A stretch of DNA of 64,000 nt, from positions 1,089,224 through 1,153,223 of the forward strand of contig NZ_QNRE01000001.1 of assembly GCF_003315035.1 (NCBI RefSeq), in the 5' to 3' direction. The first letter of the stretch is position 1, and every line of letters starts with the position of its first letter. A model generated the notes under the pieces. That model searched no databases and was not told the origin of the DNA. It was given only the letters and a program-made list of their open reading frames with translations. The stretch is from Nocardia puris (lineage in GTDB: Bacteria; Actinomycetota; Actinomycetes; Mycobacteriales; Mycobacteriaceae). This document shows, piece by piece, positions 10,047-63,969 of the stretch. Made by a program: the position numbers and the translations under genes.

Positions 10047-13000
10047 TCAGAGCATGCAGCTCACGCAGCCCTCGACTTCGGTCCCTTCCAGCGCCATCTG
10101 GCGCAGGCGGATGTAGTAGAGGGTCTTGATGCCCTTGCGCCAGGCGTAGATCTGGGCCTTGTTGAGGTCGCGGGTGGTGGCGGTGTCCTTGAAGAACAGC
10201 GTCAGCGACAGGCCCTGGTCCACGTGCTGGGTGGCCGCGGCGTAGGTGTCGATGATCTTCTCGTAGCCGATCTCGTAGGCGTCCTCGTAGTACTCGAGGT
10301 TGTCGTTGTCCATGTAGGGCGCCGGGTAGTAGACGCGGCCGATCTTGCCTTCCTTGCGGATCTCGATCTTCGACGCCACCGGGTGGATCGAGCTGGTGGA
10401 GTGGTTGATGTAGGAGATCGACCCGGTCGGCGGCACCGCCTGCAGGTTCTGGTTGTAGATGCCGTGCTCCATGACCGAGGCCTTCAGCTCGCGCCAGTCC
10501 TCCTGGGTGGGGATGTGCACGCCCGCGTCGGCGAACAGCTGCCGCACCCGGTCGGTCTTCGGCTCCCACACCTGGTCGGTGTACTTGTCGAAGTACTCAC
10601 CGCTGGCGTACTTGGACTCCGGGAACCCGCCGAAATAGGTGCCGCGCTCCTTCGCGATCAGGTTCGAGGCCCGGATCGCGTGATAGACCACGGTGTAGAA
10701 GTAGATGTTGGTGAAGTCGATGCCCTCTTCGGACCCGTAGTGGATCCGTTCGCGCGCCAGGTACCCGTGCAGGTTCATCTGCCCCAGGCCGATGGCGTGC
10801 GAGGAGTTGTTGCCCTGCTCGATGGAGGGCACCGAGTAGATGTGGGTCTGATCCGACACCGCGGTCAGCGCGCGGATCGACACCTCGATGGTGCGCGCGA
10901 AATCGGGCGAGTCCATCGCCTTGGCGATATTGAGCGACCCGAGGTTGCACGAGATGTCCTTGCCCACCTTCGAGTAGGACAGGTCCTCGTTGAACTCCGA
11001 GGGCGTGGAGACCTGCAGGATCTCCGAGCACAGGTTGGAGTGGGTGATCTTGCCCGCGATCGGGTTGGACCGGTTCACCGTGTCCTCGAACATGATGTAC
11101 GGGTAGCCCGATTCGAACTGCAGCTCGGCGATGGTCTGGAAGAACTCGCGCGCCTTGATCTTCGACTTGCGGATGCGCTTGTCGTCGACCATCTCGTAGT
11201 ACTTCTCGGTGACGTCGACGTCGGCGAACGGCTTGCCGTAGATGCGCTCCACGTCGTAGGGCGAGAACAGGTACATGTCCTCGTTCTTCTTCGCCAGCTC
11301 GAAGGTGATGTCGGGGATCACCACGCCCAGCGAGAGCGTCTTGATGCGGATCTTCTCGTCCGCGTTCTCACGCTTGGTGTCGAGGAAGCGGTAGATGTCG
11401 GGGTGGTGCGCGTGCAGGTACACCGCACCCGCGCCCTGCCGCGCGCCCAGCTGGTTGGCGTAGGAGAACGAGTCCTCCAGCAGCTTCATGATCGGGATGA
11501 CGCCCGAGGACTGATTCTCGATCTTCTTGATCGGCGCGCCGTGCTCGCGAATGTTGCTGAGCAGCAACGCGACACCGCCGCCGCGCTTGGACAGCTGCAG
11601 CGCCGAGTTGATGGAGCGCCCGATGGACTCCATATTGTCCTCGATGCGTAAAAGAAAGCAGTTGTGCACGACGGTGCCGCGGATCGTGTAGGTGTGGGTG
11701 CCCTCGACGTGGAGGTTGTACACCTTCTCCGGAATCTCGGTCGTGTGCTCGATTGAACGGATACCGTAGACGTGACGACCATGAACCACCTGGTAGGTCG
11801 TGCGCTTCACGCCCTTACGGCCGACGTAGTTGTGCAGATTCTTACCGATGTCGAAGATGAACTCTTCGTTCGTACCGGGAAGGCCGGGCACGAAGACCTG
11901 GCCGGTCACATTGCCCGCTTGGTTGATGTAGCCACGGACCACCGACACGATGCCGAGACGCCGCAGAATCAACTGGACCTGGTCGACAAGTGCGGGGTTG
12001 ACCAGATCGAGCATCATCCCGCCCGAAGTACTGCACCCGTCGCCACGGAACAGCCCGGCCAGCAGGCCACGCTGAAAATCCTCGTCTGCGGTCAGCACGT
12101 CATGGGACAGCTGCTTGGCGTTGTAGCCGGTACCTGCCAGCGACAGCAACAGGGAAGCGACAACTTTGCTGTTGCACACCATCCTCGTGGAGTGGTCGGA
12201 ATGATTGGTATGCAGGGAGAGATCGGTTCCGAACACCTGCTTGAACGCCATGCCCAGCTCGACGTGGTATTCGACCTCATGGGCACCCAGGGTGAAGTGA
12301 ACGCCGTTGGGCTGCTCATCGTCACGGCCCGACCGCTTCGACACATGCCCCTCGGCCAGGTACCAGCCGAGAATCAGCCCCAGTTCGTAGGACTCTTCGA
12401 CGTAGCGGTTCACCGCGACGAAACGTTGGCTGTGCCGGTCCCTACTGCGATGTTTGGCATCGGTGTTGACCTTGCGGATCAGCCCGTCGACCTCTTCATA
12501 GACACCCGAACCGGTGTGATCCATGAGATCGAACACGCGCCGTGCGCGATCGACGGTCGGTGCCGCCGTCACGATGAAGTCGGTCGGTCGCACGTCCCGC
12601 GCGGCCAACCACACGAACCCGTTGAACGGATCGGCGCCGTCACCGTCGATCAGAGTGCCGACCTCACGGGAGGTCCACACCAGGATCGGATGCTCGGGAG
12701 TGCACCGAATCGGCTCCTTGTGCCCGAAGTGCGAAATCGACACCAGCGCCTGATCGTTCGGGTTCTCCACCAGCGTCTCCACCACGCGGAAAGAGCCGTC
12801 GTGGGACAGCACACGATCGCCGGGTCGCAGGGTCTCGATGGCGCGGGGTCCGTCGATGGTGTCCACCGGTGTGCCCGCCGGGAAGCAGCTCACCGGTTCG
12901 CCGCGCTGCTTCTTGCCGGAGTTGAGGAAGGTGGGGGTGGCCGGTTGGAAGCGGCCGTCGATGATCTCCTCGACCAGCTTGCGGGCCAGGTCCTCGTCAC

Positions 13001-57774: not shown

Positions 57775-60700
57775 CTACACCGGTGACGGCAGCTCCGGCA
57801 GCAGGCCGTCCTCGCGGAACCAGCCGAGGTAGCGGTCGATGACCGCGTCGGTCACCTCCGGGCAGGTGATGCCCAGAGGTGCCAAGGCGCGCCGGGCCTG
57901 GGCGTCGTCGAGGATGACGTCGGCGGCGGCCGGGTCGCCGACGTGGACGAAGTTGCCGACCAGGAGGGCGGCGCGCATGAGATCCGCGTTCTCCGAAGCC
58001 CTTTCGGCGAGGCGCTGCTCGGCCTCCTCGACGCTCACGGTCTCGATCGGATAGCCCAGGCGGCGCAGGCCCGCCAGCAGGTCCGTCACGGGGGTCGGGT
58101 GGGTGTTGACCAGGTGGTATCGCTGACCGGTGGGCACACCCTGCGCCGCGAGGGTGACGATGGCGCGAGCCACGTAATCGACCGGGGCGAGCAAAACGGT
58201 CGCGGTGCCGACGTCGGGCGCGACGCCCAGCAGGGCGGCGGCGCGCACCATCGTCCACATCGAGTCGTCGGCGCTCATCACGCCGGAATCGACGGAGCCG
58301 CAGATCAATCCGGGCCGGTGGACCGCGACGGGGATGCCGCGCGCGCCCGCGTCGAGCACCAGTTGTTCGGCGACCCATTTGGTGGCGACGTAGCCGTGGC
58401 GGGTGACCTCCTCGGCGGGAATCGCGCTGTCCTCGTCCACGATTCCGTCCGTCTCGGTGCCGAGCACGGCGTTGAGGGTGGACACGAAGTGGACGGGCTT
58501 CACGCGGGTGGTGGCAGCCAAGCGCAGGACCTCGGTGGTGCCGCCGACGTTGGCGGCGCGCAGATCCCCGTAGGACTCCATGTGGTTCACGCGCGCGCCG
58601 TTGTGGATGATCACCGCGACGCGCGCGGCCAGGTCGGCGAACGCGGCGTCGGAGAGGCCGAGGCGCGGGGCGGCGAGATCGCCGGGGACCGCGATCACCC
58701 GGTCGGCCAGATCGTGGGCGGGCAGGCGGTATTCGTCCGCGACGGCGGCGATCCGGCGCAGTCCCTCCTCGGGATCGCTCGCCCGCACCAGGCAGTGCAC
58801 GCGAGAGTCCGTGCGGTCCAGCAGTTCTCGCAGCAAGTGGATGCCGAGGAAGCCGGTGGCGCCGGTCAAGAACACCTCGCCGGTGGCAGAGGCGGGTGCG
58901 GCGTCGTCGGCCACGGAGAACGAAGCGTCGAGGCGGCCGTCGGACACCAGCCGCGCCACCCACCGTTCGTCCTGCGCCGCGCCGAGATCGAGCGCGGCGA
59001 GGGCGCGCACGGTGGGCTGTTCGAAGACGGTGCGCGGATCGACCTCCGCGCCCAGCGCCTCCGAGAGCCTGCCCCGCAGCTTGAACACCATCAGGGAAGT
59101 GCCGCCGAGCTCGAAGAAGGTGTCGTCCAGGCCGACCGCATCACATTCCAGGATCTCGGCGAACACACCGGCGATGAGCTGTTCCTGCTCGGTCAGCGGA
59201 CGGTCGTCGGAAGGTGTTGCGGCCTTACGAGTTCCGTTGCCGGACGGGGCGACCGCGACGCACGTATCGCCGTCGGCCGGGGCTACGACGGCGATCGGCG
59301 CGGCGGGGTCGGCGACGACAGCCGACAGGATGCGCAGGTAGCGCGCGGCGAAATCCTCGACGGTCGAGTGATCGAAAAGCTCGGTGGCGTAACGGAAGAC
59401 GGCCGTGAACCCCTCGGCGCCGGGCTCTTGGCGCAGGGTCAGGGCCAGGTCGAAATGGGTTGTGTCCTGCGGCAGGTCGAGCACCGCCAGCCGCAGGCCG
59501 TCGAGCTCCAGTTCCGGGATGGCGGGCAGGTTCTCGAAGGAGAAGACGGTCTGGAACAGCGGGTGCCTGCCCTCGGCGCGCGGCGGGTTCACCGCCTCCA
59601 CGATGTGGTGGAACGGCACCTCGGCGTTCTCGAACGCGTCGAGCGTGACGGTGCGGACCAGCGACAGCAGCTCCGTGAACGGCGCGGCCGGGTCGATCAC
59701 CGTGCGCAGCGGCAGCGTGTTGACGAACATGCCGACGAGATGGTCGAGCGAGGGGTGTCCGCGCCCGGCCACCGCCGTGCCCGCGGTGATATCCGTACTG
59801 CCCGAAAGCTGTTGCAGGAGAACGGCGTAAGCGGCGTAGGCGGCCATGAACACGGTGGATTCGCTGGTGCGGGCCAGCTCGCCCAGCGCCGAGGCGATCT
59901 CGGCGTCCACCGCGAATTCCACCGCCGCCCCGCGACTGTCGCCCGTGGCGGACGAACGATCCACCGGCAGCGGCAGATAACCCGGCGTGCCCGCGAGTGC
60001 CCGGGTCCAGTGCGCGAGCTGACGCGCCGCCACCGACTCCGGGTCGTCGGCCGCGCCGAGCCGGTCCTGCTGCCACAGCGTGTAATCGGCGTACTGCACC
60101 GGCAGCGCCGCCCAGTTCGGGTGGCCACCGGTCGCCCGCGCGGCGTAGGCGGTGGTGAGGTCGGCGACCAGCGGGCCGAACGACCAGCCGTCGGCGGCGA
60201 TGTGATGGGCGACCAGCACCAGCACGTGATCGTCGGTGGCGGTGCGCAGCAGGCGCGCCCGCACCGGCAGGTCGGACGTGATATCGAAAGGCGCGCCCAC
60301 GAATTCGGCGATCGCACCGTCCACGGTATCCGGTGCGACATCCACCGGCTCGAGGTCGAGACGGGCGACCGCGTCGTCCACCGGCAGGATCCGCTGGTAC
60401 GGCCCCGCCGGGGTTTCCGGGTACACGGTGCGCAGCACCTCGTGCCGTTCCACCACGGCGGCGACGGTCGCGGTGAGCACCGAGGGGTCCAGCGGTCCGG
60501 TCAGCCGCAGCGCCACCGGCAGGTGGTACGCCGACGAGTCGGGGAACAGCTGGTTGAGCAGCCACAACCGCAGCTGGGCCGGGGCGGGCGGAATCCGCTC
60601 GGGGCGCGGGCCCGCGATCGGCTCCGGCACCGCCGTGGCGTCGGCGAGTCGGGCCGCCAGCGCCGCGACGGTCGGTGCGTCGAACACCTCGCGCACACCC

Positions 60701-63699
60701 ACACCCAGCCGGGCCGCGACCTGCGTCGCCGTCAGCGACGTACCGCCGAGCAGGAAGAAATCGTCACCGGCGCCGACGGATTCGACCTCCAGCACCTCCG
60801 CGAACACCGCCGCCACCCGGCGCTCCCCCGGCGTGGCGGGCGCGCGGAAGCCGGTGCGGCCGAATACCGGAGCGGGCAGCCGGCGGGTGTCGAGCTTGCC
60901 GTTCGGCGTCAACGGCAACGTGTCGAGCACGACGTAGGCGCCGGGACGCAGGTAGGCGGGCAGCGCGTCGGCGACCTCGGCGCGCACGGCTTCCACGTCG
61001 ATGGCCGAACCATCCTCGGGTACAAGATAAGCCACCAGGTGCGCGCCCGATCGTTCGTCGGTGTGCGCGATCACCGCCGCGCGCGCGATCTCGGGACGCG
61101 CGGTCAGCACGGACTCCACCTCGCCGGGTTCGATCCGGTGCCCGCGCACCTTGATCTGGAAATCGGTGCGGCCGTGGTAGAGGAGCGCGGGATCGGGGCC
61201 GGGGGTGATGGCCACGAGATCGCCTGTGCGATACATGCGTTCGCCCGGGGCGTAGGGGTCGGCGACGAAACGCGCCGCCGTGAGCGCGGTGCGGCCGTGG
61301 TAGCCGCGCGCCAGAGCCGGTCCGCCGATGTACAACTCGCCCGGCATCCCGGGCGGCACCGGCCGCAGCCGGGCGTCGAGCACCACCGCGCGGAAACCGC
61401 GCAGCGGCGCGCCGATCGTCACCGGTACGCCCGCTTCCAGTTCGGCGATGGTCGCGATATCGGTGGCCTCCGTGGGGCCGTAGCCGTTGCGCATGAGCCG
61501 GCCGGGCGCCCAGGCGTCGACCAGATCGGCGCGCACGGCCTCGCCGCCGACGCCGAGCACCTTCAGATCGGGCAGTTCGGCCGGATCGAGGGTCGCCAGC
61601 ACAGCGGGGGTGATGATCGCGTTCGTCACCCGCTCGCGGCGCATGAGGTCGGCCAGATCGGGGCCGGCCACCACATAGCGGGGCGCGACGATCACCGTCG
61701 ACGCTCCGGCGAGCGCGCAAAGCTGTTCTCCGACAGCCATATCGAAGCCGGGTGAGGCGTGGTGCAGCGCGACCGAGCCGGGGTGCAGGTCGTAGCGGTC
61801 GCGACGTTCCTCGGCCAGGTTCGCCAGGCCGCCGTGGGTCACCAGCACGCCCTTCGGGACGCCGGTCGAGCCCGAGGTGTAGATCAGGTACGCCGTGTTT
61901 GCCGGGGAGAGCGCGGCGGTGCGGTCGGCGTCGGTGAGGGCGGCCCCGCCGAAACCGGCCGTGGTGGCCGGGTCGTCGAGCAGCAGCCAGTGCGTGGAAT
62001 CCGGCAGTTCCGCACGTAAAGCGCTGGTGGTGAAGCCGATTCGCGCGCCGCAGTCGCCGAGGATATGCGCGATCCGCTCCGGCGGGTAGCCCGGGTCGAC
62101 CGGCACGAACGCCGCGCCCGCCTTGGTGATCGCCCAGCCGGCCGCCACGGACTCGGCCGAACGCTCTACCGCCATGGCGACGCGCGTCTCCGGACCCGCG
62201 CCCACGGCGACCAGCGCACGGGCCAAACGGTTTGTCCAGGTGTCGAATTCGGTGTAGATCCAGCGGCGGTCGCCGTGCACGACGGCGGTGCCGTGCGGGT
62301 TGCGGGCCACCGCGTCGGCGATCAGGTCGCCCAGGGTCGCCGCGGGGATGCCCGGCGTGCCGCGCCACGGCAGCAGGCGCTCCCGCTCCTGCGCGTCGAG
62401 CACCTCGAGCGAGCGCAGCGGGGTGGCCGCGTCGGCCGCGACGAGATCGCCGAGCAGCCCGACGAATCGGCGGTGGTGGGCCTCGAGTTCGGTGTGGGAG
62501 TAGCGATTCGGGTTGCCCTCGAACTCGATCCGCAACCCGGAATCGGCCGGGTAGATATTGAGCGTCAGATCCTCGACCGGGCCGGTGGACAGCAGGTGCA
62601 GGGTGCCGCGGGCCGGGCCCAGGTCGACGCCGGTGCGGAAGTTCATGATGTTCACGGCGGGCCCGAAACCGCGAACATCGGTGCCGCGCGCCGCCATTCG
62701 CGCGATGTCCTCGCCGCGGAAGCGCTGGTGGCGCAGCGCGCCGCTGAGTTCGCGGCGGGTGGCGGCGAGCAGATCGGCCAGCGTGGTGTCGTCGGTGACG
62801 GCGACGCGCAGCGGGACGATGTTGTTCACCATGCCGCCGCCGCGCCGCAGCACGGCCGTGGTGCGGGCGGTCACCGGCAGGCTCATGGTGATCTCGTCGG
62901 CGCCGGTCATCCTGGCCAGGTAGCCGGCGAGCGCGGCGATGAGCACGCCCGAGGTGCCCGCGCCGTCGGCGGCGCGCTCCAGCGCGGCGTTCAGCTCGTC
63001 GGGCAGCGCGCCGCCCACCACCAGCGCCTGCGCGGCGGGGGCGCCCGGCCTGGTGGCCAGGGTGGTCGGGGCAGGCAGGTCGGCGGCGCGCTCGGCCCAG
63101 TGGGCGCGGTCGGTCTCGTAGCGCGTGGACTCGCGGTAGGCGATATCGGCCTCGACCAGCGCGGCGGGCGGCTGGAGCACGCCGGGCGGGATCTCCTCGC
63201 CGCGGATCATGGCGGCGTAGATCTCGGCGTGCCGCTGCTGCATGCGCATGGCGCCGTAGCCGTCGAGCGCGATGTGGTGGGCGCGGGCGTAAGAGAAGTG
63301 GCGTTCGGGGCCGACGCGCAGGAACGTCCCCTGCAACGGCGGGTCGGTGTGCAGGGCGAACGGGCGGGCCTGGTCGGCGCGCATCCAGTCCAGCGCGGCC
63401 GCGGCCGGGTCGGGTTCGCCGGTGAGGTCCAGGTAGCCGATCTCGTCGTGCTGATCGTGCTCGATGGACTGCGTGACCGATCCGTCGGCGGCCTGGGTGA
63501 ACCGCAGGTACGCGCCCAGCTCCCGGCCGGCTAACCGCCCGGCCTCCTGATAGGCCGCCAGATCCAGCGGACCTTCGATATCGATGTACTGCGTGGTGGT
63601 GACCGGCACCTCCCCTAGCAGCTGCTGGGCAAACCACACTTCGCGCTGAGCGGACGTCAGTGGCAGGAATTCATCGTTGTCACCGGACGAACGCATCAC
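57775..63699 (-). CDS. Iron-regulated NRPS: C-A-PCP-C-PCP-thioester reductase
   Basis: 1974 residues. C1 about 10-430 (HHIALDG at 141-147), A about 455-945 ([13 protein letters not shown] at 605-617; TGDL at 825-828; K in NGKLDTRR), PCP1 (LGGTS, Ser988), C2 about 1035-1475 (HHIAADG at 1165-1171), PCP2 (LGGTS, Ser1535), then a reductase domain about 1605-1974 (TGATGFLG at 1612-1619; YVATK Tyr1770/Lys1774). Condensation and carrier motifs are intact. There is no second A domain between C2 and PCP2. R domains release the product as aldehyde or alcohol. GTG/ATG start at 63699/63696; iron box 33 bp upstream. Product and first acyl donor unknown. Confidence 0.93.
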
Positions 63700-63969
63700 G
63701 CACTACCTTGAACCTATCGGGAACAAAGCACAAAGGTTAGCCTAAGCTCGCTGCCCGCAGCCACTCGGGGCGCGTCGCCGAGATCCAGTTGCTGAACGTT
63801 CGCCGCCTGATGTCGGCGGGCCACACGGAGGCCGTCCTCAGCCACACCCCCGAACAGCAACCTCGCCCACCGTCACGCGATTCGATCCGGCCGATCGTAA
63901 TCCTGGCGCCGGCCGGGCCGCGGTGGTCGGATCTGGGGCCTACGTCCCGGTTCGAGAGGAGTCCCTCGT
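63700..63969. promoter_or_regulatory. Divergent promoter region between the NRPS and the right-edge gene
   Basis: 270 bp that contains the iron box (63732-63750) near the NRPS and GAGAGGAG just before the right-edge gene. No other clear signal. Confidence 0.55.
63732..63750. promoter_or_regulatory. IdeR/DtxR-type iron box
   Basis: AAAGGTTAGCCTAAGCTCG matches the 19-bp IdeR consensus (TTAGGTTAGSCTAACCTAA) at 14 positions, including the whole centre GGTTAGCCTAA. It lies 33-51 bp upstream of the NRPS start, in promoter position, so the gene is probably repressed when iron is plentiful. Confidence 0.78.

What the first reader, a model, noticed from the sequence alone, without database searches (positions are those of the whole stretch)
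57775..63699. NRPS with two condensation and two carrier domains but only one adenylation domain, ending in a thioester reductase
Seen: C-A-PCP-C-PCP-R with intact HHxxxDG motifs in both C domains, serines in both carrier sites and the full reductase motifs, but no A-domain core motifs between C2 and PCP2 (the gap is only about 25 residues). Known: dimodular reductase-ended NRPS in this order usually have an A domain in each module (isonitrile lipopeptide Nrp) or a single module (myxochelin MxcG). Inference: the one A domain loads both carriers, or a separate A protein loads PCP2. A product with two residues, or a homodimer of one residue, released as aldehyde/alcohol is expected.
Basis: partly seen in the sequence, partly recalled or inferred. 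Interest (0 to 1): 0.82.

Follow-up and report, generated by a model that had tools for sequence, protein, structure and literature searches.

The report
Iron-controlled Nocardia peptide synthetase with reductase
This Nocardia gene encodes a large enzyme that probably builds a small iron-scavenging molecule using one amino-acid-loading domain for two carrier sites; several other Nocardia species have the same odd layout, and the product is unknown.

Summary
One intact 1974-aa ORF on the minus strand (63699-57775) encodes C1-A-T1-C2-T2-R, with 29 residues and no A domain between C2 and T2. The layout is a stable family trait: 18 of 20 related loci found, all Nocardia, have it. C1 is nearest to chain-initiating C domains. 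An IdeR/DtxR-like iron box lies about 50 nt upstream; 18 of 20 relatives have one in front of the gene or its operon. A hydroxamate-type formyltransferase gene lies directly upstream in 5 of 20 and convergent in a sixth, and occurs in 20 of 20 carrier genomes tested against 19 of 30 non-carriers. Best reading: an iron-regulated siderophore synthetase making an N-acylated two-residue product, probably with formyl-hydroxamate side chains, released as aldehyde or alcohol. C-A-T-C-T has a precedent in NbtD of the same genus. Substrate and starter are unproven.

The parts
57775..63699 (-). NRPS gene, C1-A-T1-C2-T2-R, 1974 aa
62380..63675 (-). C1, initiation-type condensation domain (residues 9-440)
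   Evidence: Own-family profile; nearest solved chains 7c1k, 4jn3, 6n8e, 5ja1
60865..62337 (-). A, the only adenylation domain (455-945); code DMGIGGGDIK (positions placed by recalled GrsA numbering)
60646..60852 (-). T1 carrier domain (950-1018), Ser 988; stretch after the serine about 6 residues shorter than in T2
   Evidence: predicted four-helix carrier fold, mean pLDDT 87
59287..60594 (-). C2, elongation-type condensation domain (1036-1471)
   Evidence: nearest solved chain 5u89 (DhbF)
59200..59286 (-). 29-residue linker where a second A domain would lie
58987..59199 (-). T2 carrier domain (1501-1571), Ser 1535
57805..58899 (-). R, thioester reductase domain (1601-1965)
63732..63750 (-). 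IdeR/DtxR-like iron box CGAGCTTAGGCTAACCTTT, about 50 nt upstream of the start
   Evidence: 15/19 to a recalled consensus; best in 107 kb (next best 13); 12-base core occurs once in the window and in 0 of 100 shuffles

Best explanation
An iron-regulated, single-gene siderophore synthetase family of Nocardia. Under low iron the repressor leaves the upstream box (inferred). C1 puts an acyl or aryl starter onto the first residue, which A has loaded on T1. A also loads T2; C2 joins the two residues; R reduces the T2 thioester and frees an aldehyde or alcohol. The residue is most likely an N-hydroxy, N-formyl diamino acid (N6-formyl-N6-hydroxylysine favoured), made by the NbtG-like hydroxylase and the formyltransferase that G000 encodes on contig C8. 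Shown: domain order, intact motifs, conservation, the box, and the formyltransferase association. Inferred: regulation, double loading, substrate, starter and product.
For: Same order in 18 of 20 relatives. Iron box at 14/19 or better in front of the NRPS or its operon in 18 of 20, against 4 such sites in 350 kb of the same loci outside those stretches. Formyltransferase gene directly upstream on the same strand behind one box in 5 of 20, convergent neighbour in 1; present in 20 of 20 distinct carrier genomes tested against 19 of 30 non-carriers (Fisher p 0.0015, not corrected for kinship). N. alba NBRC 108234, one of the five, is reported to make an N-acetyl nocobactin type, so that gene is probably not there for nocobactin. 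G000 keeps the hydroxylase and formyltransferase side by side, with a box-like site upstream, but has no NbtD ortholog: best match 39% identity over the protein, against 51% or more in 36 of 40; NbtD's A domain finds at best 46% in G000 with all 134 candidates scored, against 70-85% in three genomes that have NbtD. N. jejuensis pairs this A domain with a T2-type carrier. No second A-domain ORF of 300 aa or more lies in the held DNA around the 20 relatives or in the window. C1's seven best solved relatives are, as recalled, starter or aryl-accepting C domains.
Against: No substrate has been tested. The A code differs from those of the nocobactin NRPSs here (DALHPGHVSK, DAQDAGFVEK) and from the other formyltransferase-linked NRPSs examined. 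In most carriers, G000 included, the formyltransferase lies elsewhere, and in those whose surroundings I fetched it mostly lies beside nocobactin genes. The hydroxylase is in 38 of 40 genomes and so says nothing specific. No siderophore-type exporter, uptake gene or starter-supplying gene was seen beside the window gene. The N. jejuensis pairing places A beside T2, whereas T2 in G000 is more distant. The box was matched to a recalled consensus.
Confidence: 0.45

Rival explanations
1. T2 is loaded in trans by the A domain of another protein, so the two residues differ.
For: G000 holds many other NRPS genes. No sequence feature tested here shows that A reaches T2.
Against: No stand-alone A-domain ORF of 300 aa or more in the held DNA around the 20 relatives, nor in the window or L004. 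N. jejuensis pairs A with a T2-type carrier.
Confidence: 0.25
2. Works like NbtD: T2 takes a hydroxy-acyl unit made elsewhere, C2 forms an ester, and R frees the chain.
For: NbtD is C-A-T-C-T in the same genus, and NbtD is thought to bring in the hydroxy fatty acyl unit by an ester.
Against: C2's nearest solved relatives are elongation domains (5u89 DhbF, a PCP-C didomain; amide formation recalled). C2 matches the second C of the NbtD-type proteins at only 32% (L084) and 36% (L115).
Confidence: 0.12
3. T1 and C2 are bypassed and the enzyme works as C1-A-T2-R, like MxcG, giving a one-residue product.
For: N. jejuensis lacks T1 and C2; the best NCBIfam match is MxcG, though far below its cut-off (980 of 2300 bits); T1 is short after its serine.
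Against: T1 and C2 motifs are intact, the order is kept in 18 of 20 relatives, and T1 is predicted to fold as a carrier.
Confidence: 0.08
4. Iron-regulated but not a siderophore: a peptide aldehyde or alcohol with another role, such as a protease inhibitor or signal.
For: Reductive release commonly gives bioactive aldehydes (recalled); no siderophore transport genes were seen beside the gene (by eye).
Against: Iron box and formyltransferase association.
Confidence: 0.1

Closest known systems
NbtD of nocobactin synthesis (C-A-T-C-T)
   Same: One A domain for two carriers, an A-less C-T, same genus, siderophore pathway
   Different: No reductase; other A code (DALHPGHVSK); A domains about 41% identical
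MxcG of myxochelin synthesis (C-A-T-R)
   Same: Best NCBIfam match (980 bits); starter-type C, one A, reductive release (MxcG's order recalled)
   Different: Cut-off 2300 not met; extra C-T; catechol genes were not searched for, and none was noticed beside the gene
Nrp/ScoA-type isonitrile lipopeptide synthetases (recalled)
   Same: Reductase-ended; a TauD-type oxygenase gene lies next door in G000
   Different: TauD gene not found in the held DNA of 19 of 20 relatives; no thioesterase, acyl-CoA ligase or ACP gene noticed directly beside it (by eye)
Formyltransferase-linked, reductase-ended NRPSs in another genus of the same family (L118, L119)
   Same: Formyltransferase nearby, iron-box-like site, R domain at the end
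   Different: More modules with their own A domains; R 35-37% identical; in L119 the T-R part lies in another ORF

Membership tests
NbtD (nocobactin) | C-A-T-C-T order with one A domain | tested here: met
   NbtD order
NbtD (nocobactin) | Ends after second T, no reductase; orthologous sequence | tested here: not met
   R domain present; A 41% identical; no NbtD ortholog found in G000
MxcG (NF038078) | Reaches the curated cut-off | tested here: not met
   980.3 against 2300 bits
MxcG (NF038078) | Single C-A-T-R module (recalled) | tested here: not met
   Two C and two T in G000; of the 20 relatives N. jejuensis alone is C-A-T-R
Reductase-terminated NRPS | Thioester reductase domain over the cut-off, with NAD(P)-binding and Tyr/Lys motifs | tested here: met
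   TIGR01746 312.3 against 213.35; motifs
Initiation (starter) C domain | Closer to starter C domains than to elongation ones | tested here: met
   top seven distinct chains 7c1k, 7c1h, 7c1p, 4jn3, 5du9, 6n8e, 5ja1 at 146 bits or more, then 1l5a at 86; the rest at 70 or less; the roles of the chains are recalled
IdeR/DtxR-regulated gene | Palindromic iron box upstream, conserved among orthologs | tested here: met
   binding itself not tested, consensus recalled
Hydroxamate siderophore synthetase | A domain activates an N-hydroxylated (acylated) diamino acid | not testable with these tools
   No labelled code library here; association only
Isonitrile lipopeptide Nrp | A domain in both modules; partner genes beside it (recalled) | tested here: not met
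   One A domain; partner genes judged by eye only

The most novel reading that the evidence does not exclude
A new siderophore class: an N-acylated dipeptide of two identical N6-formyl-N6-hydroxylysine units, built by one A domain loading both carriers in cis and freed by reduction as an aldehyde or alcohol, made as a second, soluble system beside or instead of nocobactin; N. jejuensis makes the one-residue version.
Probability: 0.22. Interest if true: 0.72.

Novelty: new variant of a known kind. Interest (0 to 1): 0.52.

Why it matters
A single gene in a genus with opportunistic pathogens appears to encode a siderophore outside the nocobactins. The published Nocardia siderophore survey describes extracting cell pellets (passage seen), so a soluble product could have been missed in strains that carry this gene (N. 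alba, N. jejuensis and N. fusca are in its strain list). The natural pair of two-carrier and one-carrier enzymes with the same type of A domain makes the question of how one A domain serves two carriers directly testable.

Tried and rejected
Second A domain missed by models or hidden in another frame: none found. Frameshift or sequencing artefact: rejected by conservation. Neighbouring TauD and glycine-betaine-type ABC transporter as partners: TauD found near only 1 of 20 relatives, so treated as unrelated. An ABC exporter pair follows the NRPS gene in G032 (L032, L107) but related genes directly after it were not found in the other 19. Ornithine/lysine monooxygenase (PF13434 at E 1e-30) as marker: 4 of 10 carriers and 8 of 30 non-carriers, no association; the NbtG-like enzyme matches that family only weakly and is in 38 of 40 genomes, so it does not discriminate. 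A code against formyltransferase-linked NRPSs of other genera: no match. NbtE-type search: 4 of 18 genomes, uninformative. The first look scored only 11 candidates per genome; one search repeated the test with the A domain alone and scored all 134 in G000. Tree for gain or loss of T1-C2: N. jejuensis is not firmly placed; one change by parsimony, direction (loss) only likely (L095 and L107 left out). A first tree used wrongly oriented outgroups and was replaced. Paper searches that listed no description of this NRPS. Papers: PMC7413640, PMC5550956, PMC3751702 and PMC4035055 were seen as passages only (PMC4035055 also as abstract and outline); the figures that list all clusters were not held.

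Full report
What is there. The finding's coordinates match one ORF exactly, but on the minus strand: 63699 to 57775, 1974 aa, no internal stop. Domain models give C1-A-T1-C2-T2-R with one adenylation domain. Own-family profiles place C1 9-440, A 455-945, T1 950-1018, C2 1036-1471, T2 1501-1571 and R 1601-1965. All core motifs looked for are intact and the C2-T2 linker is 29 residues.

Is the layout stable? In 40 genomes of the same genus, drawn from a larger group, 10 hold an ortholog (G000 included); the listed matches of the other 30 are ordinary NRPSs, mostly about 45% identical and at best 53% over part of the protein. One scan of named genomes with the A-domain core found 20 loci, all Nocardia; it used two short peptide patterns, so relatives with a changed A domain would be missed. 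Of the 20, 18 have the six domains in order; one of these, L107, is cut inside C1 by its contig end. L095 breaks after A, and its remaining part lies in a second ORF. L098 (N. jejuensis) is C1-A-T2-R. Its carrier scores 95 bits with the T2 profile and 59 with T1. The A code DMGIGGGDIK is the same in 8 of 9 complete ortholog A domains tabulated; G004 differs at one place, and the two halves of the broken G013 copy are cut short.

Regulation. An IdeR/DtxR-like box lies about 50 nt upstream of the start, 15/19 to a recalled consensus; it is the best match in 107 kb, the next best being 13; in 200 shuffles of the 430-nt upstream stretch the best site reached 14 twice and never 15. The 12-base core occurs once in the window and in none of 100 shuffles. 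Among the 20 relatives, 18 have a site of 14/19 or better in front of the NRPS or its operon. The two misses are L107, whose contig begins inside the gene, and L111, whose best site is 13/19 (G021). The same loci outside those stretches hold 4 such sites in 350 kb, one of them (L109) in front of the formyltransferase gene. The binomial value ignores kinship.

Partners. A formyltransferase gene directly precedes the NRPS on the same strand, behind one box, in L099, L100, L103, L104 and L106, and is a convergent neighbour in L109: 6 of 20. In the unnamed assembly G032 (the MAG of L107) it also precedes the start of the NRPS gene, on another contig (L088). It is present in 10 of 10 carriers and 19 of 30 non-carriers, and in 15 of 15 named carrier genomes (15 of the 20 loci were given). 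Five genomes occur in both sets, so 20 of 20 distinct carriers; L103's genome was not tested. Fisher p is 0.0015 without correction for kinship. In other genomes whose surroundings I fetched it lies mostly in nocobactin-type clusters with an NbtG-like hydroxylase. G000 keeps the hydroxylase and formyltransferase side by side on contig C8, but the nocobactin synthetase NbtD was not found: best match 39% identity, against 51% or more in 36 of 40 genomes; G032, G033 and G038 lack it too. A second test with NbtD's A domain alone agrees: at best 46-49% in those four genomes, 70, 76 and 85% in three genomes that have NbtD. The survey PMC7413640 (passages) says that NbtD is C-A-T-C-T and that N. alba NBRC 108234, one of the five operon-like cases, makes an N-acetyl nocobactin type. 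So in that strain the formyltransferase beside this NRPS is probably not for nocobactin; a second, 51% identical formyltransferase also exists there.

How it probably works. C1's closest solved relatives are starter or aryl-accepting C domains at 146 to 223 bits, then 1l5a at 86, the rest at 70 or less (the roles of those chains are recalled). C2 is closest to DhbF and to a PCP-C didomain. T1 is about six residues shorter than T2 after its serine, in the window and in all 18 relatives laid side by side, yet is predicted with a carrier fold (mean pLDDT 87.2; the top PDB matches are carrier domains). No stand-alone A-domain ORF of 300 aa or more was found in the held DNA around the 20 relatives, in the window or in L004. 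I therefore propose: an acyl or aryl starter from C1, the same residue loaded on T1 and T2 by the one A domain, an amide from C2, and reductive release by R. The N. jejuensis enzyme is the best evidence that this A domain accepts a T2-type carrier. The tree shows one change of state but does not place N. jejuensis firmly, so loss of T1-C2 is likely, not shown.

What weakens it. The A code matches neither the nocobactin nor the other formyltransferase-linked NRPSs seen here. In G000 the supposed partners are on another contig. No siderophore transport gene or starter supplier was seen beside the gene. The association counts do not correct for relatedness. Substrate, starter and product are inference.

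Place among the known. It is not NbtD (R present, different A domain), not MxcG (cut-off not met, extra C-T) and not an isonitrile Nrp (one A domain). It works like a fusion of NbtD's one-A, two-carrier logic with MxcG-type release. No description of this synthetase was found in the held papers; cluster figures and supplements were not readable.

Noticed in passing
L078:9215-11888 (G000 contig C8): Formyltransferase and NbtG-like hydroxylase genes without the nocobactin NRPS genes that follow them in relatives, with an iron-box-like site at 11622: a remnant or a supply unit for another synthetase.
   Followed up: partly
L079:1053-18357 (G000 contig C14): A second siderophore-type cluster with iron-box-like sites: by eye a carrier-first NRPS, an IucA-like protein and a PLP decarboxylase beside a lysine/ornithine monooxygenase (PF13434); resembles what a nocardichelin pathway would need (recalled).
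   Followed up: no
L118 and L119 (G146, G224; another genus of the same family): Formyltransferase genes beside multimodular NRPS genes that end in a reductase (in L119 in another ORF), with iron-box-like sites: reductive release may be wider among formyl-hydroxamate synthetases.
   Followed up: partly
window 60646-60852: T1 is about six residues shorter than T2 after its serine, also in the 18 relatives listed; may affect which partner domains it meets.
   Followed up: partly
L095:6791-9868 and L034:7264-13204: N. cyriacigeorgica NBRC 100375 copy is split into two overlapping ORFs in different frames; sequencing error or real break is not known.
   Followed up: no
L032:4881-7437 (G032): In this one genome an ABC exporter gene set lies directly after the NRPS gene on the same strand; not found there in the other 19 named loci.
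   Followed up: partly
window 63970 onward (L004:3193-7859): Divergent TauD-type oxygenase followed by a glycine-betaine-type ABC transporter operon; it shares the intergenic region that holds the iron box.
   Followed up: partly
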